DNA from: Pseudovibrio ascidiaceicola | GTDB taxonomy: Bacteria; Pseudomonadota; Alphaproteobacteria; Rhizobiales; Stappiaceae | DNA length: 56,481 bases | Assembly (NCBI RefSeq): GCF_900114245.1 | Contig: NZ_FOSK01000020.1 | Coordinates: 1 to 56,481, forward strand | Reading direction: 5' to 3' | Shown here: piece by piece, positions 24,258 to 56,082 of the stretch | How positions within the stretch are numbered: the stretch's first letter is position 1 | Layout: each line of letters starts with the position of its first letter | The notes under the pieces: generated by a model | What the model was told of the DNA's origin: nothing | The model's database searches: none | Seen by the model: only the letters and a program-made list of their open reading frames with translations | Translations under genes and position numbers: made by a program

Positions 24258-27200
24258 TTAAATCAACTTAAATGCATAATAACAACCGCCAAGATCACTC
24301 TCTTTACCCCATCTTGCATCAACGATTTTTAGTTTTGCAATCAAAGCAAAGTTGCCGCTGCTATTCTCTCTGATTAGGTGCATGATTTCGCGACGACATT
24401 TAAGTTGTGTACCGATATTGGGGCCTAGCTCACTCTTTCTTGCAGGGAACCATTGATGTAACCAATATTTCCATTGCGCTATTTCACTACCTTTTGCGTC
24501 AGCATAAATCACAGCATCTTCTTTGAAGTCTTGGGTAGGTGGAGGTACGCCGATAAAAAAAGCAGGCTGGAAATAGCCCCGGCCTAGCAGATCGGTTAGC
24601 CATCGACCGGTATGCTCAAAAAATATTTTTTTGGTGACATGTGCCCCGTGCGCTGTAGAATCTTTGTGAAACAGCTCTTCAATTTGAGCTTGATCCAACA
24701 GGGTGGTGCCACAGTTAATCAATGCTATCTCGAAATCAGCCTCTAATTTCTCATCATCACATTTTATCGGTCCTGAAGCGCGCAATACAAACTCATTATC
24801 CATTGAAGGGCTAATACTATTGAGAACAGCGTCGACATCGATACTGCCATTCTCAGTCTTAAATTGCGAGAAAATTGGCCAATTAGCAGGCTTTTGGGAT
24901 GGCTCCAATCGTCCCAAAGAGTCCTCGAATGGGATTGTTAGTAGTGACAGCTCCCTTGCTTGGTCATTATTAATGATGCCTTCTCCTAGAGCAAATTCAA
25001 CCGTCTTAAGAAATGCAGATAAATACCCAGCCTCAGCACGCCACGATAATGAGCATCCAATATTATCTATCCCATTGTATTTTTCGGAACAGAAATTGTG
25101 AGGATTAAAAGTAGGGATACTTGCTTGTTTTTTGATCTCATTCCATTCTATCGCAAGTTGACTTTGAAGCGTTTCTTTGTATTCGCAGCCACAATACTCT
25201 TCAAGTAGAGAAACATATATTTGAGGAATTCCGTTTTTATAGATTTGTTCAATCGGCGTAGCATCCTCTGAAGTGGTTTTTTGGAGGATATATTCAAACC
25301 GATCTGAACCAAAAATTTTAGCGATGTAATGCTCTGAGAGAAGCGATGGGCTTTTAATAGCTTCCCTGATTTCATTTTCTTCTATCCCCACGTCGCCAGA
25401 AAGAGTTAATATGGATAGGAAGTCACAAATCTCTATGTCCAAATCCAGCTTTGAAAGCTTATGGATGTAACGCTCTCTAAAACTACGTTTAGTTTTTAGT
25501 AACATTGCGATCTGTTTCGCCGACTTAAGCCGAGCTTGCTTATCTGGCCAGAAAAAATACTCCAATAAGATGTCATAGGATGCATTTTCGATTGAATAGC
25601 TCTTATCAGTCCATGCAAGAATAGGTAGCGGTAAATGGGAAATTTCTTGTTCTAATGAGCTAAGCATTACGTTGGTAACGGAAATAGCTAACTCCTTCTG
25701 ACCAGCATTAAGAAGGAACAATACCAAAGAGCTTGTTGGCACAACTTTCCAAACATTCTCGTCGCTGAAATTTTGAACACCTTCTAAAGTTTGCGCAAGA
25801 ATATCATTCCATCTGTTTTTGTAAATGCGGGCATATTTTACGATCTGTTCTTCAGATGTGGCGCCCGACCATTTTGACCAGTGATGGTTGTCATTTATAT
25901 CGTTGATGCACCACTCCAAGGCTTGGTTCTTTCCTTGGAGTTTATGACTGATATCAAATACCGCTGGTAGGCATCTCTCTAAACCCCAAATTTTCTCACG
26001 CCCCTTTATGTAAGCCTTACGAAAAGCTTGAATGACATCTAATCCTTTTCCATGATTAGTCCAAACCTTTGCCCATTCTTCAACTTGCTTATGATTAAGA
26101 AAGCGATGTTCTTTTGTTAAGGCATCGATTAATTCTGAGAGATTATCTGGTGGGAAATGATCGTAGTTTAATTTCACGTAATCATTATCAAAAGGAGTGT
26201 TTTTTTCTTCAGGAACTAAATAATGTCCACCAATGAAAGTTAATTGAGCATCATAAATGGACTTTAAAGAAGTATCATTCTTTGACTGCTCTTTGAGAGT
26301 CTCTAACCAACTTCTATTCAACAGGCTATACAAGATCGAGTGATCTGCAGGTGCATTTAATGGGAAGTACTTAATATATGCTGAGATAACGCTATCAACC
26401 CACCCCCAATCTTGCTCGCGCAAATGGTATTCCAAAATTGCGGGCAATTTTTCCGGCATAAATTGGGCGATTAGGTTGATGAACTTTTCTGGCAGATGGC
26501 GTATCTCTCGCTCAGTGAAGTTAAACATCCCAACCGTAAATGGCGCGACTCTACTGAGCCATTCTCTGTGATAACCAACTTCAAATTCGGCACAATACTC
26601 AATGGCCTTATAGAGTTCATGAAACGTTGTATCCTTACGTTCACCATACCCTAAGGTGTATTGGCCGACAGTTTTCATGATTTTAGTCACTACTGAATTA
26701 AGTCGAAGACCGTTCGCAATTTTAGCGAGGTCAAGAGCATCGTTTGCTAGATATCCAGTGTTTTCGCGTCTTTGATAAAGATCATTATGGAGTTGTGTAA
26801 CAAGCACCTCTAGAACTTCACTTTTTACCAAACTGTCAGCAGATCTCTCAGACAAACATGTGAGCCAAGCGTGAGCATTCCAATACTTGCAATTGTGAAC
26901 TTGGTTGAACTGATGAATATCGAGTTCAATAGATTTATTACATGCGTGAGCGATTACATATAAATCTACTGAGATTTTGTTCAATACATGCTGCGCTGTA
27001 TGCCATAACATAGACACGTCATGATCGATTTCTCGACGGTTAGGAAATTTAAGTTCATCAAAATAGGAGTAAATAGATAGTGGGTTAACCTTTTTCCGGC
27101 GATTAAGATCTATAGCCACTTCTTTGGCTAAGAATGAGAATGCAGCATTCATGGACTGTAGAAATGCATCTTTTCCACGACCAACGATGACTGGCTTTTC

Positions 27201-41386: not shown

Positions 41387-41671
41387 TTACTGGGTCCACC
41401 GCATTTGATGCCCAACAGCATTGCGCAGCAGTTTTGCAATTTGCAGGGCAGGAGGAACACGTGACCATATGGTTCTAAGTTTTTTCTTATCATTGCGGGT
41501 TTGTCTAACAGCTTGCCCCTTTACAACGCATTGTGACCAGCGAAAGCCAATTTCATGCATATCAAGATTAGCATGGGTTGTGCTGATATGATGAAAAACA
41601 CCGGAAACGGTTCGCTTGACTTTGGAGCGGAAACCCTCGCTGGAGTTTATATGCACACGGTCCGTGAACTG
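41387..41671 (-). pseudogene. IS1595 (ISXO2-like) transposase, C-terminal remnant
   Basis: VHINSSEGFRSKVKRTVSGV followed by FHHISTTHANLDMHEIGFRW matches the C-terminal part of ISXO2-type DDE transposases (H-T-N-x-x-E-G ... K-R ... YHH). The upstream part of the open frame (to 41953) is not recognisable and appears to be a fusion. Confidence 0.75.
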
Positions 41672-41939
41672 TTCCCCGCCGAAGCCATATGGACAGGTGG
41701 GTGGGTTTGAGTAAGGGAGTGTTTTGACCCAGGATCCCGCTGACTGGAGTGAGAAATAAGGTAGAACGGCATGCTGCATGAATGCCTGTTTGGAGAATTT
41801 CAGGCCCTTCATGAAGATAACTGAAGACGCTTCTGGATGAATTAGATCAACTCTTGATAGATTAGCTCGAATGACGGCTGTTGGCCCACTTTGCCAAATC
41901 CCCGACGATCTCAGTGCGTTGCATTCATTCTCAGAAATC

Positions 41940-42002
41940 TGAGCCTGTCTCAACTAATTCGAGCCCAGTCTCAAATAATCTGAGCCCAAAATCGCGATGA
42001 TC
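41940..42002. repeat. IS-end-like direct repeats
   Basis: Three spaced copies of a (C/A)T(G/C)AGCC(C/T)..TCTCAA..AAT pattern end in AAAATCGCGATGATCTCAAGCC. The same sequence, diverged, is at 33288-33318 beside the IS481 remnant. This is likely a terminal segment of an IS481-type element. Confidence 0.55.
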
Positions 42003-42072
42003 TCAAGCCGAGCCATCGATAATATCAAGCCGCTACACTTAGCCTCCCTGACCCTCAAGGTGGATTATCAAG

Positions 42073-42303
42073 CTACTGATCCGTTTCCTGGAACTGTTTT
42101 TCACGCGCGGCAATCTCCGGATAGGCATCCGTCAGCAGTTTTCCGCCGACCCCGATATTGTCGTAGGAATGCTCTTCGATATGGATGGTCAGGAGGTTGG
42201 CGTCCAGCCCTGTGCTTTCTTCAAAAGCTTTTGTCAATGCGGCGACGCAAGCGACCTTTTTCTCTCTGGGAAGGCGCGGTGAATAAACAACGATGTGTGG
42301 CAT
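42073..42303 (-). CDS. 4-oxalocrotonate tautomerase-like small enzyme
   Basis: 76 residues. The ATG at 42303 puts Pro directly after Met (MPHIVVYSPR), giving the N-terminal catalytic proline of the tautomerase superfamily; GGAA lies upstream. An ATG at 42315 would bury that proline, so the shorter start is preferred. It follows the second SPASM radical SAM gene by ~45 bp on the same strand and is probably the last gene of that operon. Its partner reaction is unknown; it may tautomerise a modified product or be a passenger. Confidence 0.8.
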   Translation of the reverse strand: MPHIVVYSPRLPREKKVACVAALTKAFEESTGLDANLLTIHIEEHSYDNIGVGGKLLTDAYPEIAAREKQFQETDQ

Positions 42304-42346
42304 GGCATTTTCCATTTCTGTCGTGAGTTTGATTTTATTAAGAAGC

Positions 42347-43342
42347 TCAAGCGCTCAGTCTATCATGTATGAGCCAGCAGTAAGGGTCCTCTGCCATCAT
42401 ATCTTGGTCCACCGCCCAGGCGGCGGCTCTGCACCCGCCGCATTGCCATTTGAAAGAGCAAGAGGCGCATCCACCCTTAACATCGCGTTGGTGTAGTGCC
42501 TTGATGTGAGGGGAGTTTGACCAGATCTCGCCAAAGGAAGTATCCTTCAGGTTTCCCAATGACAACGGGAACATAACGCAAGGTGTCACATCACCCTCAG
42601 CGGTGACACATGCAATGCTGATCCCCGCCTGACAGCCTCCCCGGCACGCATCAGCATCGGGTGCAAGTGAAGCCAGTCCTGACGAATGGGCGGACAGATA
42701 TATATCGGGGTAATCAGCCTTGGCTGCCAGCCATGTCTGCAATAAGGCGCGCGCTGTATCAGGCTTCAACCCTTCGCTCAATGCACCGCGTCCGGTGGGT
42801 ATGAACTGGGAGAGGTTGAACCCATCAACTTTGAGCTGTGCGCACAACTCCAGCATATCAGGCAATAGGTGCGCATTGCGGCGCATCGCCGTGAAGCAGA
42901 TGTGTGTTTTCAGCCCTGCCTCAAGGGCAGTTTCAACCGCCTCTAACGCCTTTTGAAAGGAGCCAAGCCCGCGAACGGCATCGTGCACTTCTTTGGTGCC
43001 GTCAATGCTCACCTGTAACCGTGAGAGACTAGCTTGTTTCAATTTTTCGGCTGTCTTTTCCGTAAGAGGGTACCCGTTAGTACTGGTGCCCACAGTCATG
43101 TTGAGGCTGCGGGCATACGTCACCAGTTCTGGTAGGTCCCGGCGCAGCAGTGGTTCTCCGCCGGAAAATGCAACGTCCACAACGCCAACATCATTCATTT
43201 GCTGCAAAATCTCTTTTGCGCGGCTGGTGGAATAGCCTTTATCGCCTTCCTTGTCCGCATTAGAAGAGCAGTGAATGCAGGACAGGTTGCAATGATTGCT
43301 TAAAATGAAAACCACGTGCAAAGGATAGGAGGGTCTGAACAT
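42347..43342 (-). CDS. Radical SAM/SPASM enzyme 2
   Basis: 331 residues. The [4Fe-4S] motif is CNLSCIHC (C18, C22, C25), followed by the GGEPLLR motif. The C-terminal half is a SPASM domain with many cysteines: CRGGCQAGISIAC, TPCVMFPLSLGNLKD, CASCSFKWQCGGCRAAAWA, DPYCW. SPASM enzymes usually modify peptides or proteins. The ATG at 43342 with GAGAGG upstream was preferred to a GTG at 43348. It begins 9 bases after the cobalamin radical SAM gene. It is paralogous to the SPASM protein at 45092-46141, especially in the SPASM region. Confidence 0.92.
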   Translation of the reverse strand: MFRPSYPLHVVFILSNHCNLSCIHCSSNADKEGDKGYSTSRAKEILQQMNDVGVVDVAFSGGEPLLRRDLPELVTYARSLNMTVGTSTNGYPLTEKTAEKLKQASLSRLQVSIDGTKEVHDAVRGLGSFQKALEAVETALEAGLKTHICFTAMRRNAHLLPDMLELCAQLKVDGFNLSQFIPTGRGALSEGLKPDTARALLQTWLAAKADYPDIYLSAHSSGLASLAPDADACRGGCQAGISIACVTAEGDVTPCVMFPLSLGNLKDTSFGEIWSNSPHIKALHQRDVKGGCASCSFKWQCGGCRAAAWAVDQDMMAEDPYCWLIHDRLSA

Positions 43343-43351
43343 GACCACCTC

Positions 43352-44803
43352 TCAGAAAAAGGATTGCAGGATACGGCTTTCGACAGATTTCAAATCCGGT
43401 TGCATGCCGCTGGTTTCATAAAACTCTTCAACAAGATGCAGATTTTGGGCGATAAACTTGCGCAACCGCTGCGAGGCATTGCAAATATCTTCATAACTGG
43501 AGCCGATGCTTTTGTGAGTGATGGTGTCTGAAAACAAGACAGCCTCTGCCAGCGTCGCCTGAGAGAATTTCGAGTAATCTTCAAAGTCCCTAAAGCGTGG
43601 CTCTACGCCAAAGCGGGCGGGATCTTCATGAATAGACGTGTGCGGAAACAGGATCATCGGGCTTACCCAGCGCGGAATGCCGCCAATCTTCATGGTTTCA
43701 AGGATCAGCTTCTCCGTATCGCGTAGCGCAGTTTCATCCTCACCGGGAAGGCCCGCCATCCACCATGTAAACGGTTCCACCTTAGCCTGCACCGCCTCGG
43801 AAATACTGAGCACCACCTCTTCGTGGTCGAGATGGCGGTTGTTTATCCGCGCCACGTCGTAAGAGCCGGTTTCGACGCCAAAATCCACGCTGGCCAGCTC
43901 ACAACATGCAGCAAGGGCAGCGTACCCCTCATATCCATAGCTTTCCGGATGGGCAAAGATGTTGAGATGGTCGGGGCGAATATCGCGCCGCATCAATTCC
44001 TCACTCAGCTCAATGAGTTTGACATTCCCGCCTACAAAAAAGTTGTCTTGAATGGTAAAGCGCGTAATGCCCTCGCTCATCAGCGCTGCAATCTGGTCTA
44101 CGATACGTCTTGCGGAATGAAACATCAGCTTACGCCGACCCTGAAGGCGGCCAATGACGGGTTCCACACACCAGGCGCATTTGAATGGACATGCGCCGCG
44201 TGTGGTGGAGATTGCCCCTGCATCTGGTCGCAGTGAGCGGGGTTTGAGCACCGAGTAGCGATAAACTGGAAGATCATCCATTTCTTCCAGCACCTGCGGC
44301 GCCCCGCCGTCACCTGTGCTTGTCACCAGTCCCGACACCTCTTCAGTGACTCTTCCAGACCGGGCAACCTGCTGGCAAATAGAAAGCAGCGCATGTTCGG
44401 CCTCACCCCTGATGACCCCATCTACATAGGGTGCATTGGTACTGGCGATTTCTTCAGCAAACATCGTGGCGTGTTGTCCGCCAACATAGACAGGGACATG
44501 AGGTAGCAAAGCCTTTACAAGACAGGCCACCTCAAGTGCACCAGAGCTGAAATGAACCCAGTTGAGACCAATGGCGATAACTATTGGGTCCTCTTTGAGG
44601 ATGAAAGCTTTCACATCCTCCTCCTCAAACCCATAGTGCAGCGCTAAGGGCACGTGCAGACCACGTACCTCAAAGCCATGCGCTTCCAGCCACGCGGCAT
44701 TGGCCAGCAAACCAAGTCCAAATTGCTTGTCATCCAGACACGGTGAAGTTTGACTAAAGGAGGTTGGCGGCTGGATAAATAAAACCCGATCACGCTGCCC
44801 CAT
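43352..44803 (-). CDS. Cobalamin-type (B12-binding) radical SAM enzyme
   Basis: 483 residues. The N-terminal ~180 residues have a Rossmann-like B12-binding domain (VLFIQPPTS, VYVGGQHATMFAEE), without the DxHxxG histidine of methylcobalamin enzymes. The radical SAM motif is CPFKCAWC (C205, C209, C212), and the barrel follows. Such enzymes do methylations, rearrangements or cyclisations at unreactive carbons. The ATG at 44803 is four bases after the PqqD-like stop and has GGTGAGG upstream. Its setting between a PqqD-like protein and SPASM enzymes points to peptide or protein maturation. Confidence 0.92.
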   Translation of the reverse strand: MGQRDRVLFIQPPTSFSQTSPCLDDKQFGLGLLANAAWLEAHGFEVRGLHVPLALHYGFEEEDVKAFILKEDPIVIAIGLNWVHFSSGALEVACLVKALLPHVPVYVGGQHATMFAEEIASTNAPYVDGVIRGEAEHALLSICQQVARSGRVTEEVSGLVTSTGDGGAPQVLEEMDDLPVYRYSVLKPRSLRPDAGAISTTRGACPFKCAWCVEPVIGRLQGRRKLMFHSARRIVDQIAALMSEGITRFTIQDNFFVGGNVKLIELSEELMRRDIRPDHLNIFAHPESYGYEGYAALAACCELASVDFGVETGSYDVARINNRHLDHEEVVLSISEAVQAKVEPFTWWMAGLPGEDETALRDTEKLILETMKIGGIPRWVSPMILFPHTSIHEDPARFGVEPRFRDFEDYSKFSQATLAEAVLFSDTITHKSIGSSYEDICNASQRLRKFIAQNLHLVEEFYETSGMQPDLKSVESRILQSFF

Positions 44804-44807
44804 AACC

Positions 44808-45095
44808 TCACCCGAACTCAATGAGATTACGCTTGTTCAGCTCTTGTAAAAAGGAAAGGACTGAGCCTCTCAGCACTTCTTCCTCCATGTCGCTTTCCTG
44901 CAAGAGCAGTTTACCACCCAGATGAACGACTTCATCGATTTCCTTGCCATCACACTGATCAAAGATTGCCTTACCGCTGCTGGTGACAATGTGAAGCTGG
45001 TCGGTTTTGGGGTGATAGAGCAGAAAGTTGCCTTCCTCCTCGGTTCGGCAGCGCACGCCCTCGGTGTGGCGCACTGTTGTAAAATGCTCGCTCAA
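44808..45095 (-). CDS. PqqD-like peptide recognition (RRE) protein
   Basis: 95 residues with the PqqD winged-helix pattern: VRCRTEEEGNFLLYHPKTDQLHIV (strands), SSGKAIFDQCDG, then a helix and FLQELNKRNLIEFG. PqqD-type domains bind leader peptides and present them to the radical SAM enzyme. The start is TTG at 45095, forming a TTGA overlap with the stop of the upstream SPASM gene; GGGAGG lies seven bases ahead. It is the main pointer that this cluster works on a peptide. Confidence 0.85.
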   Translation of the reverse strand: MSEHFTTVRHTEGVRCRTEEEGNFLLYHPKTDQLHIVTSSGKAIFDQCDGKEIDEVVHLGGKLLLQESDMEEEVLRGSVLSFLQELNKRNLIEFG

Positions 45096-46141
45096 CCTCT
45101 TGCCTCCCTTTTACAACTGGTACCGGAGCCGAACTCTGGCATATCGGGTTTGATCCAACAGGTTGGGTCGCCAGCATAAACATCACCGTACCAAGCATAA
45201 CTGGCTGCGCGGCACCCTCCACATTTCGCCTTGTGCTCACACACAGAACAGTTGCCTGAGCTGATGTTATCCCGGGAGCGGATCTTGTGAAGCTCGGGCG
45301 CGCTGCGCCAGATGTCCGCAAAGCTCTGTTCTTTGAGGTTACCAACAGCAACAGGCAGAACAACGCAAGGGGTTACATCTCGGTCTACGGTTATGCGGCA
45401 GTGAGTATATCCAGCCCCACACCCCTTGTAGGGGTCTGCTTCAGCTTCTGGGAGCAGCAAGCCAACCCGACAATCGTGCCAGTCGATTTCCAGCTTACCT
45501 TTCCACGTCTCACCAGCCTTGATCCAAGCTTCCAAAAGCGTACCAAGCTCTTGAGGAGAGGGCATCAGGTCAACACCACCCCGTGTGGTATAAACATACT
45601 CCGTGAGGTTGATTTTTTCCGCGCCAAGGCGATGCGCCAGTGCAATCATATCCTGAGCCTCGCCCAAGTTGGGTTTCATTGGGGTGTAATTTATGGTTAC
45701 CCGCACACCAGCCTCAGTCAGGTATTGTGCTGCTGCACAGGCCTTGTCAAAAATACCCGACAGCCCGCGGATTGCATCATGAGTTTCGGCTGTCGCACCA
45801 TCCAAACTGACGCTCACATTAGAAACCCCGAGCTCCTTCAGTCGTCTTGCGACCTCCGGAGTTACCAATATTCCATTGGTCGCAAACGTGACCCGCATAC
45901 CTAGGGAGGTAGCATGGTCTATCAGTTGCTCCCAATCCGAACGTAACAGCACCTCACCACCAGAAAGCGCAAGAATGAAGACACCGGCCTCTGCAAGCTG
46001 ATCAATCAACTCCAGTGCATCCTCAAGGGGCCAATAGTCAGGCCCTCTGCCAAACAAAGCGTCGGAATAGCAATGCACGCAGCGGGCATTGCAATCCAGT
46101 GTTGTTTCCCAAACAACATAAAGGGGAGAAGATAGCTTCAT
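45092..46141 (-). CDS. Radical SAM/SPASM enzyme 1
   Basis: 349 residues. The cluster motif is CNARCVHC (C17, C21, C24), with LSGGEVLLR next. The SPASM part has CGAGYTHC, TPCVVLPVAVGNLKE, CSVCEHKAKCGGCRAASYA and DPTCW. It follows the NTF2-like gene after a hairpin. The ATG at 46141 has GAGGTG upstream. Together with PqqD (4-base overlap) it probably acts first on the substrate. Confidence 0.93.
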   Translation of the reverse strand: MKLSSPLYVVWETTLDCNARCVHCYSDALFGRGPDYWPLEDALELIDQLAEAGVFILALSGGEVLLRSDWEQLIDHATSLGMRVTFATNGILVTPEVARRLKELGVSNVSVSLDGATAETHDAIRGLSGIFDKACAAAQYLTEAGVRVTINYTPMKPNLGEAQDMIALAHRLGAEKINLTEYVYTTRGGVDLMPSPQELGTLLEAWIKAGETWKGKLEIDWHDCRVGLLLPEAEADPYKGCGAGYTHCRITVDRDVTPCVVLPVAVGNLKEQSFADIWRSAPELHKIRSRDNISSGNCSVCEHKAKCGGCRAASYAWYGDVYAGDPTCWIKPDMPEFGSGTSCKREARG

Positions 46142-46164
46142 CGCGACACCTCAATTAAGGGGTG

Positions 46165-46186
46165 CAACGGCGCCGAAACGCCGTTG
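46165..46186 (-). other. Hairpin between the NTF2-like gene and the radical SAM genes
   Basis: CAACGGCG / CGCCGTTG around CCGAAA, with no T-run. Such hairpins after a precursor gene often protect its 3' end and give more precursor than enzyme mRNA. Confidence 0.65.
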
Positions 46187-46220
46187 TCCTCAACCAATTT
46201 TTAAAGATAGGTTTGGCAGA

Positions 46221-46748
46221 TTAGGCAACCATCCACGCCATGGCAGAGAGAGATCCAAGATCGTCGATTGATAGTGCGCCGACAGGAGCTACTTCAGTTT
46301 TACCTGGCGTTCCCACATGAATGTCGAGAGAGCTGATACGACCATCCTGGAGGCGGAAGTTATGGGTAAAGGGCGCCTGAAGGCCTTCTCCCTTTTTGTT
46401 GATGATGTAGCGCAGGCCACTTACAACGATGTGCTCATCATTCTTGGCGTTGGCTACATTTACCTTAGACAAGTTGGTTGCCAACATGCCATCCACGCCT
46501 CTGGCGCGGTTTTGGTAGAACCCTGCAATTTCATCATGTTTCGTATAGCTTTTTTCGCCGATCGACTCTTTGCCGTGAATGGAAAGCGTTCCGCCTGAGT
46601 GCCACAGCTCCATAATGGTGTCAGTATTAAACTTTTCACCCTTCACTGCATGAGCATCCATTTCCTTCACCGCGGCAAAGTACTTTTCAATGACACTCAT
46701 GTTACTTAAAGGCGTCAAGCTAGTTTTATTAAGCTCGCGTATATCCAT
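46221..46748 (-). CDS. NTF2/SnoaL-like protein with C-terminal tail, candidate modification substrate
   Basis: 175 residues. Residues ~18-145 look like an NTF2/SnoaL fold (VIEKYFAAVKEMDAHA ... IMELWHSGGTLSIHG ... FTHNFRLQDGRISSLDIHVG). The last ~25 residues form a flexible tail with GALSIDDLGSLSAMAWMVA. The LS-x-D-D-L-x-x-(L/V)-(S/A) pattern resembles the end of large NHLP/Nif11-type leaders, and the tail could hold the modified core. First gene of an operon with PqqD-like and radical SAM enzymes. The ATG at 46748 has GAGAGGA upstream; the longer frame is less likely. Alternatively it may be an ordinary NTF2-like enzyme of the pathway. Confidence 0.7.
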   Translation of the reverse strand: MDIRELNKTSLTPLSNMSVIEKYFAAVKEMDAHAVKGEKFNTDTIMELWHSGGTLSIHGKESIGEKSYTKHDEIAGFYQNRARGVDGMLATNLSKVNVANAKNDEHIVVSGLRYIINKKGEGLQAPFTHNFRLQDGRISSLDIHVGTPGKTEVAPVGALSIDDLGSLSAMAWMVA

Positions 46749-46829
46749 AACTGTATTCCTCTCTTTCACTTATTTCGCTAATAAAAGGAAGTTGCCATGA
46801 AAATAAAGCACGACATTCAGTAGACCAAC

Positions 46830-46843
46830 TTGATGTAAATCAA
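46830..46843 (-). promoter_or_regulatory. Perfect FNR-type box upstream of the radical SAM operon
   Basis: TTGATGTAAATCAA fits TTGAT-N4-ATCAA exactly and is palindromic. If it acts at -41.5, the start of transcription would be near 46795, with a TTTATT-type -10 at about 46801-46807 and a leader of ~47 bases. This predicts activation under low oxygen by an Fnr/FnrL protein. Confidence 0.75.
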
Positions 46844-47630
46844 CTATCCTTCTGCTGATTTTACATTTGATGCCTGCTATTCATCAATATATTTCGCGCT
46901 AATATGGCATTATTCATAATAACTAAATTTATGTAGTACTTAGCAAGAGGGCGAATTAATCAGGTGCGCGTAAATGTGTAATTTGAATATGCTCTGATGA
47001 GAAAATATACTTTCTTCAGCATAAATTGAATGAGATCGACTTGAAGTTGTGTCTTACTCCGACGGGTGAGTTTGCAAAGCCGGATTGACTGGCGGGTATG
47101 GTCACTCAGCAACGAGCTGACCGATATCTAGGTCCAACTGGACCGAGCGTGTATATTTGGTCGTTACGAAGAACAACAAGGGAACATTGAAATACATTTA
47201 CCCACGTTTAGTGATTTTGAACTGGTAAGATGCGGACTAGGCTGACCTTTGCTGCACTGCAGGAACTCAGGTAAATGAGTAGCGGTTGCCAGCGACCAGG
47301 GCCAGAAGTTGACATTCAGTCGTTTCTATCAAGGGTTGAGACCAACTTGGATTGATGATGCAGTGGCCTCTGCTTAGTACGGCCCAATCATCGATTGTGG
47401 TTCTCATCAAGCTTAAGCAAGTTCCAACACGCCTCTTCTCTCTTTTGATGGGCCTGCGCACTGCGATAGAGCATTTTTTCTGGTCTAGAGGGCCACAATT
47501 TCTGGAAACTTCCTCACATATCTTATCAAAGGCAAATACTTAGTCCCGAGCAAGCTAATCAAGACTTTTAGAAGAGAGGTTGCAATGAGCATCTGATTGG
47601 AGATTACGTAAGGCTTACTTTAGCAACTTA
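46844..47630. other. Intergenic region with a dispersed repeat copy (47243-47303)
   Basis: No gene seen. It holds an inverted copy of the repeat at 33111-33180. The terminator of the response-regulator gene should lie near 47600, but I see no clear hairpin. Confidence 0.5.
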
Positions 47631-49911: not shown

Positions 49912-50081
49912 TCAGCCTTTCAAACAGTGACAGATGTTTGTCACAGTTTGTCACGAGACCCGAAAACAGACCCACAGTATCCATGTAGGAGTTGGACAAT
50001 TCCGTCCTTAGAAACTCGGCGTTGCGCTCACCTGAGGTTTGCTTAGGTAGAAGAGCGTGCGCCCGACATGTGGGTATTCAA

Positions 50082-52838
50082 ATGGCACGAAGCATCGACA
50101 ATAAGAACGAACATGTTACCGGTAGCGTGACGTTCGACAAGATCGCAAAAAGACAGAAGAACTTCGATATTTTCGGCACTAACGAGAACGAACAAGTAAC
50201 GCTGGAATCGTTGTCAAAATCTAAAGGGGAGGTAAGGAAGAACCCGGACCTCGATTACTATGGTTATGGTGGTGTAGATTCTTTAATCTATAGCGGAGAT
50301 GAAACAAAGTCGATCGATCTCGTGGTTCTCGATGGAGATACTGTCCGTATAGAAGGGGGGCATCAAAAAGGTGGCGACTACCCTCTCGGTAGCCTGACCG
50401 TTAAAGCACACAATGTTGAGATCTTCGACTTCACCAATGAAGACGACAAAGCCAACTTTTACGGCCTTTCATATGGTATTACGGCCTACGGGGGGAAGGG
50501 TAATGACACACTGAAAGGCACAAAGGACCACGCTGACACGCTTTATGGGGGCGGCGGCAATGACGAGCTGATCGGTTATTATGGAGATGACCACATTGAT
50601 GGGGGAGAAGACGCAGATAGGATCTTTGGTGGCTCGGGGGCTGACTTACTCATAGGTGGCAAAGGAAATGACACAATTTGGGGGGGCGCATCTGGGGATA
50701 CTTTAGATAGCGCCAACGAAATGCATGGTGGTGAAGGTGATGACATCATTTATGGAGCAGTTTGGGAGCTGACAACAGACAATATCGACATAGCCTACGG
50801 TGGTTCGGGCGACGACGAAATCAGAGGTTATGATGGGAATGATATTCTTGATGGCGGTACTGGTGCCGATGTGATCTATGGGGGAACAGGGAACGATATT
50901 ATTTCCTCAGGCTCGCTAAAGGACCAAGCCGTAAGTGACCAGCTTTGGGGTGGCTCTGGTGCGGATATGTTCATCATTGGTGATGGCAGCACCGATTACA
51001 CCAGTGATCTTGTTATTGATATTTCTGCAGCTTTTCCTGACAAGGGCAATGATTGGACATCTATTCTGGATGCGGCTGGCAGCGCAGCGGGGATCATACC
51101 GGGCGTAAAAGTACTCGGCACAGTCGCGAAAGCAATAGCCTCTGGCTTCGATGCTTATTACACAGCAACCAACTCATCACAGACAATCTTTACCATTGAT
51201 GCTAGTTGGGGCAAAACTGCCGAAGTTCAGATTAAAGACTTCAATCCATTTGAAGATCACGTCATGATTCCGGTTGCAGTCACTGAGGGAGATTTTAACT
51301 CCAACTACTCCTTCGCATGGAATCCAGCAGGCAATTTAGCATTTGCGGTAACAGACACACGTCAGGGTGAAAGCCAGCAAATCGTTGTTGCCCAATGGGC
51401 TGAAGATCTCATTGATTATGTTCCCGACTATATGACGGAAAATGGCCTAGGTGAATTGATTAATGATGAAGTTCTTAAAGCTATCGGGTTCAGTATGCGA
51501 GAGAGCTACTCCATGTATGATGGGGAGAACTTCTACTATGGAACCGATAAACAGAATTTGGGCGATTGGGTCGGAGAAATGCAAGACTCCAATCTGGGTT
51601 ACATAGATATCGGTGCCTACTCAGGTCGGACAATTTATGACGACGTAACTGATAACTACCGTTGGGCCGGAACCAATTTCGGAGATGTTCTTGGTGGTTT
51701 TGTACCATCAGCTATCAACTCCACCACAACTGCGAAAGCAAATAAAGCTCAGGACGTAGTATTGTGGGGCATGGGAGGAGATGACCTGCTGTTTGGTGGT
51801 AAAGGTAATGATCTCATTTTTGGTGGTGAAAATCGTGATGGCTCATCTGACAGCGATACCGTGGCCTTTTATGATGCGACTTCTGTTATCGTTGATTTGG
51901 GCGCAAAGAAATGGGATGACGAATACAAAATCTACTACGCAAACTCCCAAGCTACCTATCTTATTGAGTCTGCAACAGAGTACTCAGCTGAAATAACAAA
52001 GACAGATTCAGACCGTTTGTATGAAATTGAAAACGTGATCGGATCAGACGGAGACGATATCATTAAAGGTGATGACGAGCGAAACATCCTTTCAGGTGCT
52101 GGTGGAGATGACAACTTAACTGGAGGGGCTGGTGCCGACACCTTTGTCTTTACAGCCAACTCTGGGAAAGACACGATAACCGATCTGGACAAAGCCGATG
52201 TACTCGTTTTCGAAGGATTGACCGCCTCTGAACGCGATGCACTGATCAGCTCTTTATCTGGTTCAGGCAATAGCCTTTTGATTGATAGCGACAATTCAGT
52301 AAGCTGGACTGGTCTGGATAAATCTTCATTCCAAACAAGTATCTCCACCAATGAAGGCGATACGGTAACTTATGATGTGACGGTTGCAGCAGCCCAAGCA
52401 GCTGAACGAGCGTATCATGCAGGGCTCTCAAACCTGACAGACACTCTGAACGCCAGTGCTGCAACACAGTCAAGCAACTATAACGACAATGCGTACCTCG
52501 CACACAACGTTCTTGATGGTGACATCGATACAATTAACCACACGGGCAAAAACGATCCAGCTCCATGGCTAAGTATTAATCTTGGTGAAGATGCATTGAT
52601 TGAGTTCATCGATCTGGAAAACCGTCAGGACAATTGGACAAGCTCGCGTCTGAGCGGCGCTCACATCGAAGTGTGGGATGATGGTGCAGTGGTCTGGTCA
52701 TCTTCAGATCTGACTTCAGCGCACAACCAGCTGATCGAAGTTGGCGGTATTGTTGGCGATGAAGTCCGCATCGATCATGCAGGTGGGCATTATCTGCACA
52801 TTGCTGAGATTGATATTTATGGTGATTTCATAGCCTAA
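50082..52838 (+). CDS. RTX protein with C-terminal discoidin-like domain
   Basis: About 918 residues. Three groups of RTX-type Ca-binding nonapeptides (GGxGxDxxx): ~50490-50920, ~51770-51840 and ~52040-52150. The C-terminal ~130 residues (SSNYNDNAYLAHNVLDGDID, WLSINLGEDALIEFIDLEN, AHIEVWDDGAVVW, GHYLHIAEIDIYG) look like an F5/8 type C (discoidin) sugar- or lipid-binding domain. No N-terminal signal is present, as expected for type I export. The ATG at 50082 was chosen; TTG 49992 and GTG 50070 are possible but no start has a strong ribosome site. The next two genes encode its likely exporter. Activity unknown; adhesion or surface binding is a guess. Confidence 0.82.
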   Translation: MARSIDNKNEHVTGSVTFDKIAKRQKNFDIFGTNENEQVTLESLSKSKGEVRKNPDLDYYGYGGVDSLIYSGDETKSIDLVVLDGDTVRIEGGHQKGGDYPLGSLTVKAHNVEIFDFTNEDDKANFYGLSYGITAYGGKGNDTLKGTKDHADTLYGGGGNDELIGYYGDDHIDGGEDADRIFGGSGADLLIGGKGNDTIWGGASGDTLDSANEMHGGEGDDIIYGAVWELTTDNIDIAYGGSGDDEIRGYDGNDILDGGTGADVIYGGTGNDIISSGSLKDQAVSDQLWGGSGADMFIIGDGSTDYTSDLVIDISAAFPDKGNDWTSILDAAGSAAGIIPGVKVLGTVAKAIASGFDAYYTATNSSQTIFTIDASWGKTAEVQIKDFNPFEDHVMIPVAVTEGDFNSNYSFAWNPAGNLAFAVTDTRQGESQQIVVAQWAEDLIDYVPDYMTENGLGELINDEVLKAIGFSMRESYSMYDGENFYYGTDKQNLGDWVGEMQDSNLGYIDIGAYSGRTIYDDVTDNYRWAGTNFGDVLGGFVPSAINSTTTAKANKAQDVVLWGMGGDDLLFGGKGNDLIFGGENRDGSSDSDTVAFYDATSVIVDLGAKKWDDEYKIYYANSQATYLIESATEYSAEITKTDSDRLYEIENVIGSDGDDIIKGDDERNILSGAGGDDNLTGGAGADTFVFTANSGKDTITDLDKADVLVFEGLTASERDALISSLSGSGNSLLIDSDNSVSWTGLDKSSFQTSISTNEGDTVTYDVTVAAAQAAERAYHAGLSNLTDTLNASAATQSSNYNDNAYLAHNVLDGDIDTINHTGKNDPAPWLSINLGEDALIEFIDLENRQDNWTSSRLSGAHIEVWDDGAVVWSSSDLTSAHNQLIEVGGIVGDEVRIDHAGGHYLHIAEIDIYGDFIA

Positions 52839-52848
52839 GACGGCACAA

Positions 52849-52876
52849 AGACACGGGCCGAATAAGGTCCGTGTCT
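52849..52876 (+). other. Hairpin between the RTX gene and its exporter genes
   Basis: AGACACGGGCC / GGTCCGTGTCT around GAATAA, an 11-bp stem with one G-T pair, without a good T-run. It likely reduces but does not abolish read-through into the exporter genes. Confidence 0.65.
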
Positions 52877-52979
52877 CACTTATCTCGGGTGAAGTTGTCA
52901 TCTATCATTACGCCTAGGGCAACTGCCGCCTATCTGACCTGTCTTTATGGGTTTCTTGCTTACTGATCGTGAGTGAAAC

Positions 52980-54773
52980 ATGTCTTCGCAACAATCTAGT
53001 TCACCAAAGCGCCCTATGGTGGCTGAGGCGTTTGCGGCGTCTCGGTCCGGGTATGCGGGCGTCGGGGTTTTGAGTCTGGTCATCAACCTGTTGATGCTGA
53101 CGGGTCCGATGTTCATGCTGCAGATCTATGATCGCGTGCTCGCCAGCCACAGCGTGCCAACACTGGTGATCATCGCCAGCTTCGCCGGTATCCTCTACCT
53201 GTTCTTCGCGCTGCTGGAAGGCATCCGTGCCCGTGGCCTGTCGCGTATTTCTCAGGAAATTGATGCCCGTCTGTCGCGCACCGCGTTTCTTGCCAACCTG
53301 CGCGTGCCACTGCGCATGGGCAACAGCGGCAAAAACGTAGATCCTATCCGCGATCTGGAGACCATGCGCCAGTTCTGGGGTGGTCAGGGTCCAGCCGCGC
53401 TCTTTGATATTCCATGGATGCCGATCTATCTGGGTCTGGTGTTCGTGCTGCACTTCTGGCTTGGCATGCTGGCACTGGCCGGTGCAGTGATCATCCTCTC
53501 GCTGGTGCTTGCCAACGAGTTCATGAGCCGCGATCCCTCCAAAGAGCTGGCCTCGCAAAACGCACAGCGCAGCAACACCCGCTCTGGTGCTCGGCGCAAT
53601 GCGGAAGTGGTGCGCGCCCTTGGCATGAGCTCAACGCTCACCAACAAGTGGGATGAAGCCAACGCCCGCTTTTATGATGCGCAGACCAAAGCAGGCGACC
53701 GCGCCTCGCTGTTCGCCACCGCCATCAAAGCCTTCCGCTTCCTGCTTGGTTCTGCCGTTCTGGCGGTTGGTGCATGGCTTGCGATCCTTCAGGAAGTCTC
53801 TCCTGGTGTTATGATCGCAGCGTCCATCATCACCTCCCGTGCTCTGTCTCCAGTGGAGCAAGCTGTTGGCCAGTGGCGCGTGTTCATCGCCGCCCGTCAG
53901 GCCCGAGCTCGTTTGGAGAAATCGCTGGAAGGTCTGGATGAGACCCCGCCAGAAACCGAACTGCCACTGCCAAGCAAGGCCCTCAATGTACAACAGATCG
54001 CAACAGCCCCTCCCGGTGCACGCGCTGTCACTCTGGCTGGTGTCAACTTTGAGCTCAAAGCGGGCGATGGCATGGGCATTATTGGCCCATCCGGGTCCGG
54101 TAAAACCAGTTTGGTGCGCGCGCTTGTGGGCGTCTGGCCAATCCTGCGCGGTGCCGTTCGTCTGGATGGGGCTGAGCTAAGCCAGTGGTCAGAAGATCGT
54201 CTGGGCACTGCCGTTGGCTACCTGCCGCAGGATGTGGAACTGTTTGACGGTACCATTGCTGAAAACATCTCCCGCTTTGCAGCAGAACGTGATGACGAGA
54301 AGATTTTGGAAGCCGCCCAGCTCGCCAATGTGCATGAGCTGGTCACCAGTCTGGCTGACGGTTATGACACGCAAGTTGGTGAAGGCGGGGCTCTGCTTTC
54401 TGCCGGACAGCGCCAGCGTGTGGGTCTGGCCCGTGCGCTTTATGACAGCCCGTTCCTGATTGTGCTGGATGAACCGAACTCTAATCTGGATTCAGAAGGC
54501 GAAGCAGCCCTGACCCGTGCTATCAAACTGATGCGTGAGACCGGCAGCATCGTCATTGTCGTTGCCCACCGTCCAAGCGCGATCTCAGCTGTTGATCTGC
54601 TGCTTGTTGTGAAGGATGGCCAACAGGCCGCCTTTGGCCCGAAAGACGAAGTCCTGCCAAAAATCAGCGCTCCTGCTGGCGTGCCAGCCCCCGGAGCGGT
54701 TCCAGCTCCCGGCGCAAAACCAGCCCCAGCTGCTGCAAAAACAGGACCATTGAGCGTGGTGCCACATGCCTGA
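52980..54773 (+). CDS. Type I secretion ABC transporter (PrtD-like)
   Basis: 597 residues: membrane part in the first ~300 residues, then an ATPase with Walker A IGPSGSGKTSLVR, signature LSAGQRQRVGLARALY and Walker B FLIVLDEPNSNLDSEG. The C-terminal tail is rich in Pro-Ala-Gly repeats. It energises export of RTX proteins through HlyD and TolC. Overlaps the HlyD-type gene by 8 bases. Codon use is more GC-rich than in the RTX gene. Confidence 0.95.
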   Translation: MSSQQSSSPKRPMVAEAFAASRSGYAGVGVLSLVINLLMLTGPMFMLQIYDRVLASHSVPTLVIIASFAGILYLFFALLEGIRARGLSRISQEIDARLSRTAFLANLRVPLRMGNSGKNVDPIRDLETMRQFWGGQGPAALFDIPWMPIYLGLVFVLHFWLGMLALAGAVIILSLVLANEFMSRDPSKELASQNAQRSNTRSGARRNAEVVRALGMSSTLTNKWDEANARFYDAQTKAGDRASLFATAIKAFRFLLGSAVLAVGAWLAILQEVSPGVMIAASIITSRALSPVEQAVGQWRVFIAARQARARLEKSLEGLDETPPETELPLPSKALNVQQIATAPPGARAVTLAGVNFELKAGDGMGIIGPSGSGKTSLVRALVGVWPILRGAVRLDGAELSQWSEDRLGTAVGYLPQDVELFDGTIAENISRFAAERDDEKILEAAQLANVHELVTSLADGYDTQVGEGGALLSAGQRQRVGLARALYDSPFLIVLDEPNSNLDSEGEAALTRAIKLMRETGSIVIVVAHRPSAISAVDLLLVVKDGQQAAFGPKDEVLPKISAPAGVPAPGAVPAPGAKPAPAAAKTGPLSVVPHA

Positions 54774-56082
54774 GCAAACAACCCTTTCCACCATTCAGAC
54801 CTCTCGTAAGAAACACATGCGCTGGGGCCTCGTCCTTGTGGGCGTTCTTGTTCTTGGCCTTGGCGGCTGGTCCTCCGTTGCCAAGATCAACAGCGCGGTG
54901 ATCACCTCTGGCGCCATCGCAGTCGATGGACAGGCCAAGAAGGTACAGCATCAGGAAGGCGGCATCGTCGGCGAAATCCTCGTCAAAGACGGCGATGAAG
55001 TCAAAGCCGGTGATGTGCTGTTCCGTCTGGATGAGACCGTGGTGAAAGCAAACCTTGCCATCACCCGCAAGCGCCTTCACCAGATGCAGGCTCAGGAAGC
55101 CCGTCTTTCTGCCGAATGGCGCAACGACGATCAGGTCGCCTTCCCGGACTATCTGGTCGAACTGGCAAAGACTGACAAGATTGCCGCCACCGCACTGGAT
55201 GGTGAGCAGGCTCTGTTCGCTGCCCGTCAGCAGGGCATCAAAGGCCGCAAAAAGCAACTTGGCGAGCAGATTGCTCAGCTGGAGCAGCAGATTGAAGGCC
55301 TGCAGGTGCAGCGCGACGCCAAGGCCGAAAGCATTGATCTGGTCACCCAGCAGCTCGCCGACTTCGCCTCTCTATTGGAAAAACGCCTGATCAACGCCTC
55401 TCAGGTCACCGCTATCAAGCGGGAACGGGCCGAGCTGGTTGGTGATCGCGGCGGATTGATCTCGCAAGTCGCCCAGACCAAGGAAGCCATCAGCGAAAAG
55501 CGCGTACAGATCCTGCAGCTGGACGAAGAGTTTTTGGAGAAGGTCCTATCCGACCTGCAAAACATCCGCTCGCAGATTGCCGAACTGGAAGAGCAGGAAG
55601 TGGCTGCACAGGATCGCCTGAAGCGCATCGACATTCGCGCCCCACAATCCGGGTATGTGCACCAGCTCAACGTTCATACCGTTGGCGGCGTGATCGCACC
55701 GGGTGATACCCTCATGCTGGTGGTGCCGGAAGACAGTGATCTGGTGATTGAAAGCCGCGTTCAGCCCGTTGATGTGGATCAGCTTCAAGTGGGACAGGAC
55801 GCCTATGTGCGCCTTGCCGCCTTCGACCAGCGCACCACACCAGAGCTGGGTGCAGCTGTGCTCAACGTCTCCCCGGATCTGACCCGCGATGAGGTCACCG
55901 GCGAGCCGTTCTATCTGGCACGCCTGAAGATCCTGGATAGCGAAATGCCGAAGCTGAACGGCCAGACCCTCGTCCCGGGCATGCCCGTCGAAGGCTTCAT
56001 CCAAACCGGTGAACGCACCGTCCTCTCCTACTTCATAAAACCCCTCCAGGATCAGATTGCACATGCGCTGAAGGAGAAGTGA
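54766..56082 (+). CDS. HlyD-family membrane fusion protein
   Basis: 438 residues: an N-terminal TM (~20-37), a biotinyl-lipoyl-like HQEGGIVGEILVKDGDEVKAGDVL, long coiled coil (~130-290) and a beta-barrel domain with RIDIRAPQSGYV. Type I secretion periplasmic adaptor (PrtE/HlyD type). No TolC gene follows in the window. Confidence 0.95.
   Translation: MPEQTTLSTIQTSRKKHMRWGLVLVGVLVLGLGGWSSVAKINSAVITSGAIAVDGQAKKVQHQEGGIVGEILVKDGDEVKAGDVLFRLDETVVKANLAITRKRLHQMQAQEARLSAEWRNDDQVAFPDYLVELAKTDKIAATALDGEQALFAARQQGIKGRKKQLGEQIAQLEQQIEGLQVQRDAKAESIDLVTQQLADFASLLEKRLINASQVTAIKRERAELVGDRGGLISQVAQTKEAISEKRVQILQLDEEFLEKVLSDLQNIRSQIAELEEQEVAAQDRLKRIDIRAPQSGYVHQLNVHTVGGVIAPGDTLMLVVPEDSDLVIESRVQPVDVDQLQVGQDAYVRLAAFDQRTTPELGAAVLNVSPDLTRDEVTGEPFYLARLKILDSEMPKLNGQTLVPGMPVEGFIQTGERTVLSYFIKPLQDQIAHALKEK

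What the first reader, a model, noticed from the sequence alone, without database searches (positions are those of the whole stretch)
42073..46843. Candidate undescribed radical SAM modification cluster with an NTF2-like protein as possible substrate
Seen: six co-oriented, closely spaced genes: NTF2-like protein with a tail, SPASM radical SAM, PqqD-like RRE, cobalamin radical SAM, second SPASM radical SAM, 4-OT-like tautomerase. Known: PqqD-type proteins bind leader peptides and SPASM enzymes modify RiPPs or proteins. Inference: the 175-residue NTF2-like protein, first in the operon and followed by a hairpin, is the substrate; its last ~20 residues (ending AMAWMVA after an LSIDDL motif) would be the modified region. 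No short precursor peptide was found, which is why the NTF2-like protein stands out. I do not recall a characterised system with this set.
Basis: partly seen in the sequence, partly recalled or inferred. Interest (0 to 1): 0.88.

Follow-up and report, generated by a model that had tools for sequence, protein, structure and literature searches.

The report
Radical-SAM cassette with tailed NTF2-like protein
A rare, compact set of six bacterial genes looks built to make an unusual chemical change, probably under low oxygen, on the unvarying tail of a small pocket-shaped protein, which would be a new kind of protein-derived product or cofactor.

Summary
The six genes are real and lie together on the minus strand (46748-42073). 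The order NTF2-like, SPASM rSAM, PqqD-like RRE, B12-rSAM, SPASM rSAM recurs in all 8 loci whose operon start I could read (4 Pseudovibrio including the window, Bauldia, Rubrivivax and Opitutaceae MAGs, an Indioceanicola plasmid); the tautomerase follows in 7 of 8. Neither protein search listed a tail-less relative, and no other small ORF is shared at an equivalent place by distant cassettes. New here: an FNR-type palindrome upstream of the operon in all 8 loci (8-10 of 10 positions; weak in one), a block of about 5 kb with unrelated flanks in each Pseudovibrio genome compared, and one decayed copy lacking both tail and intact enzymes. Modification itself is untested; whether the product stays on the protein or is clipped off is open. 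My paper searches showed no description of the cassette. Best class: new variant of a known kind.

The parts
46830..46843 (-). FNR/DNR-type palindrome TTGATTTACATCAA (10 of 10 consensus positions), 81 nt upstream of the NTF2-like ATG
   Evidence: 8-9 of 10 positions upstream of the operon in the other 7 readable loci (in L024 upstream of a preceding glyoxalase-family gene)
46221..46748 (-). NTF2/KSI-fold protein, 175 aa, C-terminal extension ending AWMVA; proposed substrate
46221..46274 (-). Proposed modified tail LSIDDLGSLSAMAWMVA (residues 159-175) and stop codon
   Evidence: AWMVA in 57 of 57 non-identical sequences; L159, D163, G165, L167 also invariant
46142..46220 (-). 79-nt spacer with a strong stem-loop (CAACGGCGU stem, UUCG loop) between substrate and enzyme genes
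   Evidence: seen in the window, L021, L022 and L023 only
45092..46141 (-). SPASM1: radical SAM/SPASM protein, 349 aa, CX3CX2C plus SPASM cysteines
   Evidence: 13 of 14 Cys columns invariant in 7 loci
44808..45095 (-). Discrete PqqD-like RRE, 95 aa, TTG start overlapping the SPASM1 stop by 4 nt
43352..44803 (-). B12-binding-domain radical SAM protein, 483 aa, CX3CX2C at 205/209/212
42347..43342 (-). SPASM2: second radical SAM/SPASM protein, 331 aa, 38% identical to SPASM1
   Evidence: 12 of 14 Cys columns invariant in 7 loci
42073..42303 (-). Tautomerase-superfamily protein, 76 aa with Pro directly after the initiator Met
   Evidence: (DmpI 69.4 bits, cut-off 70); of the 8 readable loci only L025 lacks it

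Best explanation
A self-contained, oxygen-responsive post-translational modification cassette. An FNR/DNR-family regulator switches the operon on at low oxygen or with NO (inferred from the box). The NTF2-like protein is made first. The discrete PqqD-like RRE presents it to the radical SAM enzymes (inferred from the family). SPASM1, the B12-rSAM and SPASM2 act on the C-terminal tail, with W172-M173-V174-A175 as the likely site. The B12 enzyme would most likely C-methylate, and the SPASM pair would oxidise, decarboxylate or cross-link (inferred from characterised relatives; chemistry and order unknown). The tautomerase isomerises the altered residue, an indole-derived quinone-like group being one possibility (speculation). 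Because the tail does not vary, the product is more likely a conserved cofactor-like group than a diversifying antibiotic. Because the KSI-like domain is in most pairs as conserved as the B12 enzyme, and no peptidase or exporter was seen in more than one cassette, I favour a group kept on the protein, used in or near its pocket, over a peptide clipped from it (about 55:45).
For: Tail: AWMVA in 57 of 57 non-identical sequences (one, P0136, is a fragment contained in P0130); entropy 0.00 against a mean of 1.33 bits over 51 sequences, the lowest of any pentapeptide; silent positions of its GCN and GTN codons differ between loci. Most matched KSI chains end near model residue 150-157, before the tail; a few reach 168-175. 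No tail-less relative among the 51 profile hits (49 with E below 1e-60). Adjacency: NTF2-SPASM1-RRE-B12-SPASM2 in 8 of 8 loci; 18 of 51 NTF2-like representatives share a longest-contig length with a B12-rSAM representative (indirect). No other small ORF shared at an equivalent place by distant cassettes. In the decayed copy of G010 the NTF2-like frame loses its tail, SPASM1 is split and lacks the first Cys of its CX3CX2C motif, and the B12 match covers 140 residues. FNR-type box in 8 of 8. Precedents: MftC oxidatively decarboxylates and cross-links the last residues of MftA, with MftB as chaperone (passages of PMC9012708; its text says 'N-terminal Tyr30', the title of its reference 48 says C-terminus); ApyD, a B12-rSAM, methylates the penultimate Tyr of ApyA (passages of PMC10635010).
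Against: No modification, binding or expression was measured. An invariant tail could be a docking, sealing or stability element. Five of 12 genome loci found with the B12-rSAM (L027, L029-L032; 31-41% identity) have no NTF2-like gene; one more (L026) is cut before it. Eight NTF2 representatives on contigs of 5 kb or more, the window aside, had no B12 representative of equal contig length; uninformative rather than negative. In the Bauldia cassette the NTF2-like protein is only 37% identical while the B12 enzyme is 60%, which speaks for scaffold rather than functional protein. The FNR-type site is weak in L021 (8 of 10; 36% of shuffles reach it), no shuffle test was made for L024's site, and the consensus was chosen after seeing the Pseudovibrio copies. 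The tautomerase is missing in L025.
Confidence: 0.7

Rival explanations
1. Released RiPP or cofactor: the KSI-fold domain is an oversized folded leader; the modified AWMVA end is clipped off, as in PQQ or mycofactocin, by a host peptidase encoded elsewhere. (A variant of the best explanation: the tail is still the substrate.)
For: The exact C-terminus is invariant, as expected if the end residues become the product; RRE plus SPASM is PQQ/mycofactocin logic; proteusins show large leaders resembling an enzyme subunit (passage of PMC8326336); in Bauldia the domain has diverged (37%) while the tail is kept.
Against: No peptidase or exporter family in more than one cassette among 17 flanking ORFs of L022, L024, L025 and L028 put to Pfam (single S24 and zincin-like domains occur in L024 and L025) or in the L034 annotation. 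Against L025, L028 and L034 the domain is about as conserved as the B12 enzyme (55-58% against 57-58%).
Confidence: 0.35
2. The NTF2-like protein is an enzyme or carrier, and the rSAM enzymes act on a small molecule (for instance a tetrapyrrole); the tail only docks the RRE or closes the pocket.
For: Both SPASM proteins score best against AhbD, TIGR04053 and NirJ2, of which AhbD and NirJ-type are named for haem b and haem d1 (all far below cut-off); KSI-fold proteins are often enzymes or binders; invariant Y23, W49, Y78, R113, H129 could line a pocket (position in the pocket not checked).
Against: A discrete PqqD-like RRE implies a peptide or protein substrate; no further gene is shared by the cassettes examined; docking alone does not readily explain zero variation up to the last residue in 57 sequences.
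Confidence: 0.17
3. The true precursor is a short peptide encoded elsewhere in the genome, and the NTF2-like protein is an accessory.
For: Detached precursors are known in principle (recalled).
Against: Between any two of four Pseudovibrio copies (L021, L039, L040, L041) the only shared stretch around the site is the cassette, and beside the window's cassette nothing adjacent is shared with them; distant taxa share no extra gene in the flanks examined; the NTF2-like gene is the only constant non-enzyme found.
Confidence: 0.07

Closest known systems
Mycofactocin system (MftA/MftB/MftC)
   Same: Discrete RRE, SPASM rSAM enzyme, modification expected at the extreme C-terminus of a gene-encoded substrate, product probably a cofactor
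   Different: Substrate is a folded 175-aa protein; two SPASM enzymes plus a B12-rSAM and a tautomerase; MftC score 158.9 and 160.3 against a cut-off of 265
PQQ biosynthesis (PqqA/D/E)
   Same: PqqD-type chaperone with a PqqE-like SPASM enzyme; PqqE is the closest solved chain to SPASM1 by sequence (6c8v, E 2.2e-22)
   Different: No other pqq-type gene among the six; PqqE 144.3 against 381.35 and PqqD 16.1 against 46 bits
GeoRSP system (TIGR04302/TIGR04303)
   Same: Best NCBIfam match of the RRE; SPASM protein plus PqqD-family chaperone
   Different: Scores far below cut-off (31.6/100; 168.9 and 172 of 400); no B12-rSAM or NTF2-like protein recalled for it
Aminopyruvatide (apy) RiPPs
   Same: B12-rSAM of distant similarity (ApyD model 78.4 bits) acting near the C-terminus of the substrate
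   Different: Apy uses an MNIO, a P450 and a methyltransferase on a short peptide; ApyD cut-off is 750 bits
Proteusins (nitrile-hydratase-like leader)
   Same: Large leader resembling an enzyme subunit, followed by a C-terminal core modified by rSAM enzymes (passage)
   Different: Domain here is NTF2/KSI; the tail does not vary
QhpD-matured quinohemoprotein amine dehydrogenase
   Same: rSAM/SPASM chemistry on a protein that keeps the modification
   Different: Thioether chemistry on a different protein; compared from one passage and recall

Membership tests
RRE-dependent radical-SAM peptide/protein modification system | Discrete or fused RRE (PqqD-like) beside rSAM/SPASM enzymes | tested here: met
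   PqqD 35.2 bits over cut-off 23.4; SPASM and Radical_SAM over cut-off
RRE-dependent radical-SAM peptide/protein modification system | Linked gene-encoded candidate substrate with a conserved core region | tested here: met
   NTF2-like gene first in 8 of 8 loci; AWMVA in 57 of 57
RRE-dependent radical-SAM peptide/protein modification system | Substrate shown to be modified | not testable with these tools
   Needs co-expression and mass spectrometry
RiPP in the strict sense | Proteolytic release of the modified core | tested here: inconclusive
   No peptidase in more than one cassette among the flanks examined; a host peptidase elsewhere is not excluded
Mycofactocin | MftC equivalog score | tested here: not met
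   TIGR03962 158.9 bits (SPASM1) and 160.3 (SPASM2) against 265
PQQ biosynthesis | PqqE and PqqD equivalog scores | tested here: not met
   144.3/381.35 (SPASM1), 136.2/381.35 (SPASM2) and 16.1/46
GeoRSP | TIGR04302 and TIGR04303 scores | tested here: not met
   31.6/100; 168.9/400 (SPASM1), 172/400 (SPASM2)
NTF2-like/KSI fold superfamily | NTF2-type alpha+beta fold | tested here: met
Proteusin | Nitrile-hydratase-like leader | tested here: not met
   No such model at E <= 0.1 in Pfam or NCBIfam for the NTF2-like protein; it matches the NTF2/KSI fold instead
Tautomerase superfamily | Pfam score and Pro as first residue after Met | tested here: met
   PF01361 26.8/22; Pro2 in 5 of 5 aligned loci and in the L034 ORF
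DmpI-type 4-oxalocrotonate tautomerase | NF041920 equivalog score | tested here: not met
   69.4 bits against 70, a near miss

The most novel reading that the evidence does not exclude
A self-contained, horizontally mobile cassette that, under low oxygen, turns the invariant C-terminal AWMVA tail of a ketosteroid-isomerase-fold protein into a new protein-derived cofactor through three radical SAM enzymes and a tautomerase, the group then working in the pocket of the protein that carries it.
Probability: 0.33. Interest if true: 0.92.

Novelty: new variant of a known kind. Interest (0 to 1): 0.73.

Why it matters
Most characterised RRE/radical-SAM pathways act on short peptides (recalled). A folded, pocket-bearing protein with an invariant modified tail would extend this chemistry to whole proteins, would be a candidate new protein-derived cofactor, and is small enough (six genes, about 4.7 kb) to be tested directly by co-expression. 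Its presence in Alphaproteobacteria, a Thiodiazotropha MAG, a Rubrivivax MAG and an Opitutaceae-assigned MAG (binning could be wrong), its block-like mobility and its FNR-type site suggest a useful function under oxygen limitation that I found no name for.

Tried and rejected
Viral origin: the NTF2-like profile found no relative in viral contigs (72 pattern matches, 0 confirmed) and the protein none in phage records. Broader distribution: only the window's own genome matched in 385 class-level and 398 phylum-level genomes at E <= 1e-6. Solved relatives of the NTF2-like protein: none at E <= 1 with the 51-sequence profile; the single-sequence search gave 3 at E 0.75-0.89, not used. Defence-system membership: PADLOC hits are radical-SAM matches to viperin models (31-70 bits) and one weak match of the B12-rSAM (18.9 bits); not taken as evidence. 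Tree of the SPASM proteins with five own-genome regions: long branches, and some of the ORFs picked were probably not the rSAM genes; discarded. BLAST identities kept: SPASM1 and SPASM2 38% to each other, at most 32% to the two own-genome proteins that matched. Repeats bounding the cassette: none convincing. KSI-type and 4-OT-type active-site residues were compared only from recall, so no claim is made.

Literature: ten searches. Eight were aimed at radical SAM with NTF2, Pseudovibrio, SnoaL, GeoRSP, nuclear transport factor 2, tautomerase, or PqqD plus cobalamin, and at NTF2 leaders; two were background. Searches listed no paper; one search listed 5 of 1,385. I saw no description of the cassette. 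PMC12538549, PMC12114271 and PMC12257519 were opened by passages, and what I saw concerns other systems. PMC5563371 (passages), on Pseudovibrio gene clusters, has no 'radical SAM', SPASM or PqqD in its text but mentions SnoaL/NTF2-like proteins in Pseudovibrio, including in a PKS-bacteriocin cluster of two P. denitrificans strains; its supplementary lists could not be opened, so this gene may be listed there as a SnoaL-like protein. In L040 (P. denitrificans) I saw no PKS-like ORF by eye within about 11 kb upstream and 2 kb downstream of the cassette. PMC9012708, PMC8326336 and PMC10635010: passages only. Other papers: listings only. Most subscription papers are not held, so absence from print is not proven.
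Full report
What is there. The six genes described lie on the minus strand between 46748 and 42073. SPASM1, RRE, B12-rSAM and SPASM2 are packed with one 4-nt overlap and gaps of 4 and 9 nt; the NTF2-like gene is separated from SPASM1 by 79 nt containing a strong stem-loop. Pfam places five of the six proteins over its curated cut-offs; the NTF2-like protein is just below by sequence, but its AlphaFold2 model from 21 sequences (mean pLDDT 87.8) has the KSI/NTF2 fold. Most matched chains cover model residues about 12-157; a few rows extend to 158-175. The tail is predicted as a short helix (161-171) and loose end, with mean pLDDT 81 for residues 161-170 and 71 for 171-175. The window lies in a 5.85 Mb genome; three of its same-genus relatives coincide with named Pseudovibrio contigs, so the organism is a Pseudovibrio by inference.

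Conservation of the cassette. A genome-collection scan with a B12-rSAM alignment gave 12 loci. Six carry the NTF2-like gene and the enzymes (L021-L025, L028), one is cut at its contig end inside the B12 gene (L026), and five with 31-41% identical B12 enzymes have no NTF2-like gene (L027, L029-L032). A plasmid search added Indioceanicola profundi (L034). With the window this makes 8 loci whose operon start can be read, and all 8 have the order NTF2-SPASM1-RRE-B12-SPASM2; 7 of 8 also have the tautomerase, which in L034 is an unannotated ORF (18390-18620) and in L025 is not found. The window, L021, L022 and L023 are Pseudovibrio, so the independent lineages are fewer than eight. In L023 SPASM1 and B12 are split between frames in a draft assembly; not mended.

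The tail. Two protein searches gave 51 sequences including the window's own; six further non-identical ones came from the loci. All 57 end in AWMVA, and L159, D163, G165 and L167 are invariant too; two of the 57 are short (146 and 119 aa), and one of these (P0136) is contained in P0130. In the 51-sequence alignment AWMVA has zero entropy against a mean of 1.33 bits; that 5 of 5 columns there are invariant has a hypergeometric chance of 1.6e-4, a figure to be read loosely because these five columns were chosen after seeing the alignment. Codons for these residues differ at silent positions between loci. The most diverged cassette, the Bauldia MAG, keeps only 37% identity in the NTF2-like protein while its enzymes are 51-73% identical, yet still ends EDMGKLASVAWMVA. 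The profile search returned no relative without the tail; it reaches only proteins sharing short exact words. Six-frame searches of 385, 398 and 16 genomes gave, besides the window's own gene, three intact copies and one decayed copy, all in the genus.

Is something else the substrate? Non-core ORFs of at least 20 codons in 8 cassettes with up to 1.5 kb of flank (28-53 per locus) were compared all against all: seven shared pairs were between Pseudovibrio copies, and one weak L028/L034 pair lies at non-equivalent places. So the NTF2-like protein is the only constant non-enzyme found.

Flanks. Seventeen flanking ORFs of L022, L024, L025 and L028 were put to Pfam. No family occurs in the flanks of more than one cassette, apart from generic AAA/NACHT-type ATPase domains (L024, L028). 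Several are mobile-element genes: a transposase (L022), a VapE-like protein (L024), an ArdC-type antirestriction protein (L025) and a TrbI conjugation protein (L028). Peptidase-type domains appear singly (S24 in L024, zincin-like in L025). Not every flanking ORF was tested.

Regulation. A TTGAT-N4-ATCAA-type palindrome lies upstream of the operon: window 10 of 10 positions (81 nt before the ATG; 2 of 1000 dinucleotide shuffles reach it), L022 9, L023 9, L025 9, L034 9, L028 8 (0.6-3.5% of shuffles reach these) and L021 8 (36%). In L024 the best match before the NTF2-like gene is poor, but the operon there begins with a glyoxalase-family gene and a 9-of-10 site lies 47 nt before it (no shuffle test). 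The consensus was chosen after seeing the Pseudovibrio copies, so the distant loci are the real test. FNR-type sites fit oxygen-sensitive iron-sulfur enzymes (established knowledge); which regulator binds is unknown.

Mobility and loss. The block shared between the window and the other Pseudovibrio copies spans at most about 42046 to 47110 (in the decayed copy 44388 to 47110), and between any two of L021, L040, L041 and L039 nothing but the cassette is shared around the site. An ORF with a borderline IS1595-type transposase match (27.1 bits, cut-off 27) lies at 41387-41953, beside the block. Of 16 genomes of the genus, 5 hold the NTF2-like gene. One of them, G010, is decayed: the NTF2-like match stops at position 141 of 175 with one stop inside, SPASM1 is split and lacks its first motif Cys, the B12 match covers 140 residues, SPASM2 and tautomerase were not matched there, and an IS110-type transposase lies about 1 kb away. 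Tail and enzymes were lost together, as expected if each needs the other; one case is weak evidence.

Enzymes. SPASM1 and SPASM2 are 38% identical and keep the CX3CX2C and SPASM cysteines in 7 of 7 loci aligned, apart from one C-terminal Cys in SPASM1 and two positions in SPASM2 (167, and 245 in L024) that vary. Their best NCBIfam matches are AhbD, TIGR04053 and NirJ2; none of the listed families (best 25 of 77 and of 93) reaches its cut-off, and the RRE's best is the GeoRSP chaperone at 31.6 of 100 bits. The closest solved relative of SPASM1 by sequence is PqqE. The B12-rSAM has only a weak one, a Trp C2-methyltransferase (6wte, E 0.0094). The tautomerase misses DmpI by 0.6 bits.

Mechanism. 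Shown: gene set, order, tail invariance, predicted fold, upstream box, block-like distribution. Inferred: RRE-guided modification of the tail by three radical enzymes, with C-methylation as the likeliest B12 reaction and oxidation, decarboxylation or cross-linking by the SPASM pair. Precedents are MftC acting on the last residues of MftA and ApyD methylating the penultimate Tyr of ApyA. Speculative: that Trp is the centre and the tautomerase acts on an indole-derived intermediate. Fate of the product: an unvarying tail argues for a cofactor-like role rather than a diversifying antibiotic. The domain is about as conserved as the B12 enzyme against L025, L028 and L034 but not in Bauldia, and no shared peptidase was seen; together this argues only mildly for a protein-bound group.

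Verdict. It works like an RRE/radical-SAM modification system; membership in RiPPs proper is open because release is untested. I rate it a new variant of a known kind.

Noticed in passing
window 24258-29939 (-): 1893-aa protein with a NACHT/NPHP3-type STAND NTPase domain; possible defence or signalling protein.
   Followed up: partly
window 49992-56082 (+): RTX-repeat protein with an F5/8 type C domain, followed by an ABC transporter and an HlyD-type adaptor: looks like a type I secretion set.
   Followed up: partly
window 41387-41953 (-): ORF with a borderline IS1595/ISXO2-type transposase match (27.1 bits, cut-off 27) directly beside the cassette's downstream border.
   Followed up: partly
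L034 1-1118, 18779-21876: On the Indioceanicola plasmid the cassette lies between TIR-domain and SIR2-family genes, a defence-island-like setting.
   Followed up: no
L024 2292-2738: A glyoxalase-family gene opens the Bauldia operon, with the FNR-type box in front of it; a possible extra component in that lineage.
   Followed up: partly
L025 2-742 and 11552-12694: Two ORFs with near-identical starts flank the Opitutaceae cassette; the second is ArdC-like. Suggests a duplicated or repeat-bounded mobile segment.
   Followed up: partly
L027 9001-10485: Terasakiella carries a 41% identical B12-rSAM with none of the other five genes found within 9 kb: a relative that may have a different substrate.
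   Followed up: no
L029 2933-14861: Clostridium sp. KNHs214 has a distant B12-rSAM (33%) among several other rSAM-like ORFs, perhaps another modification cluster.
   Followed up: no
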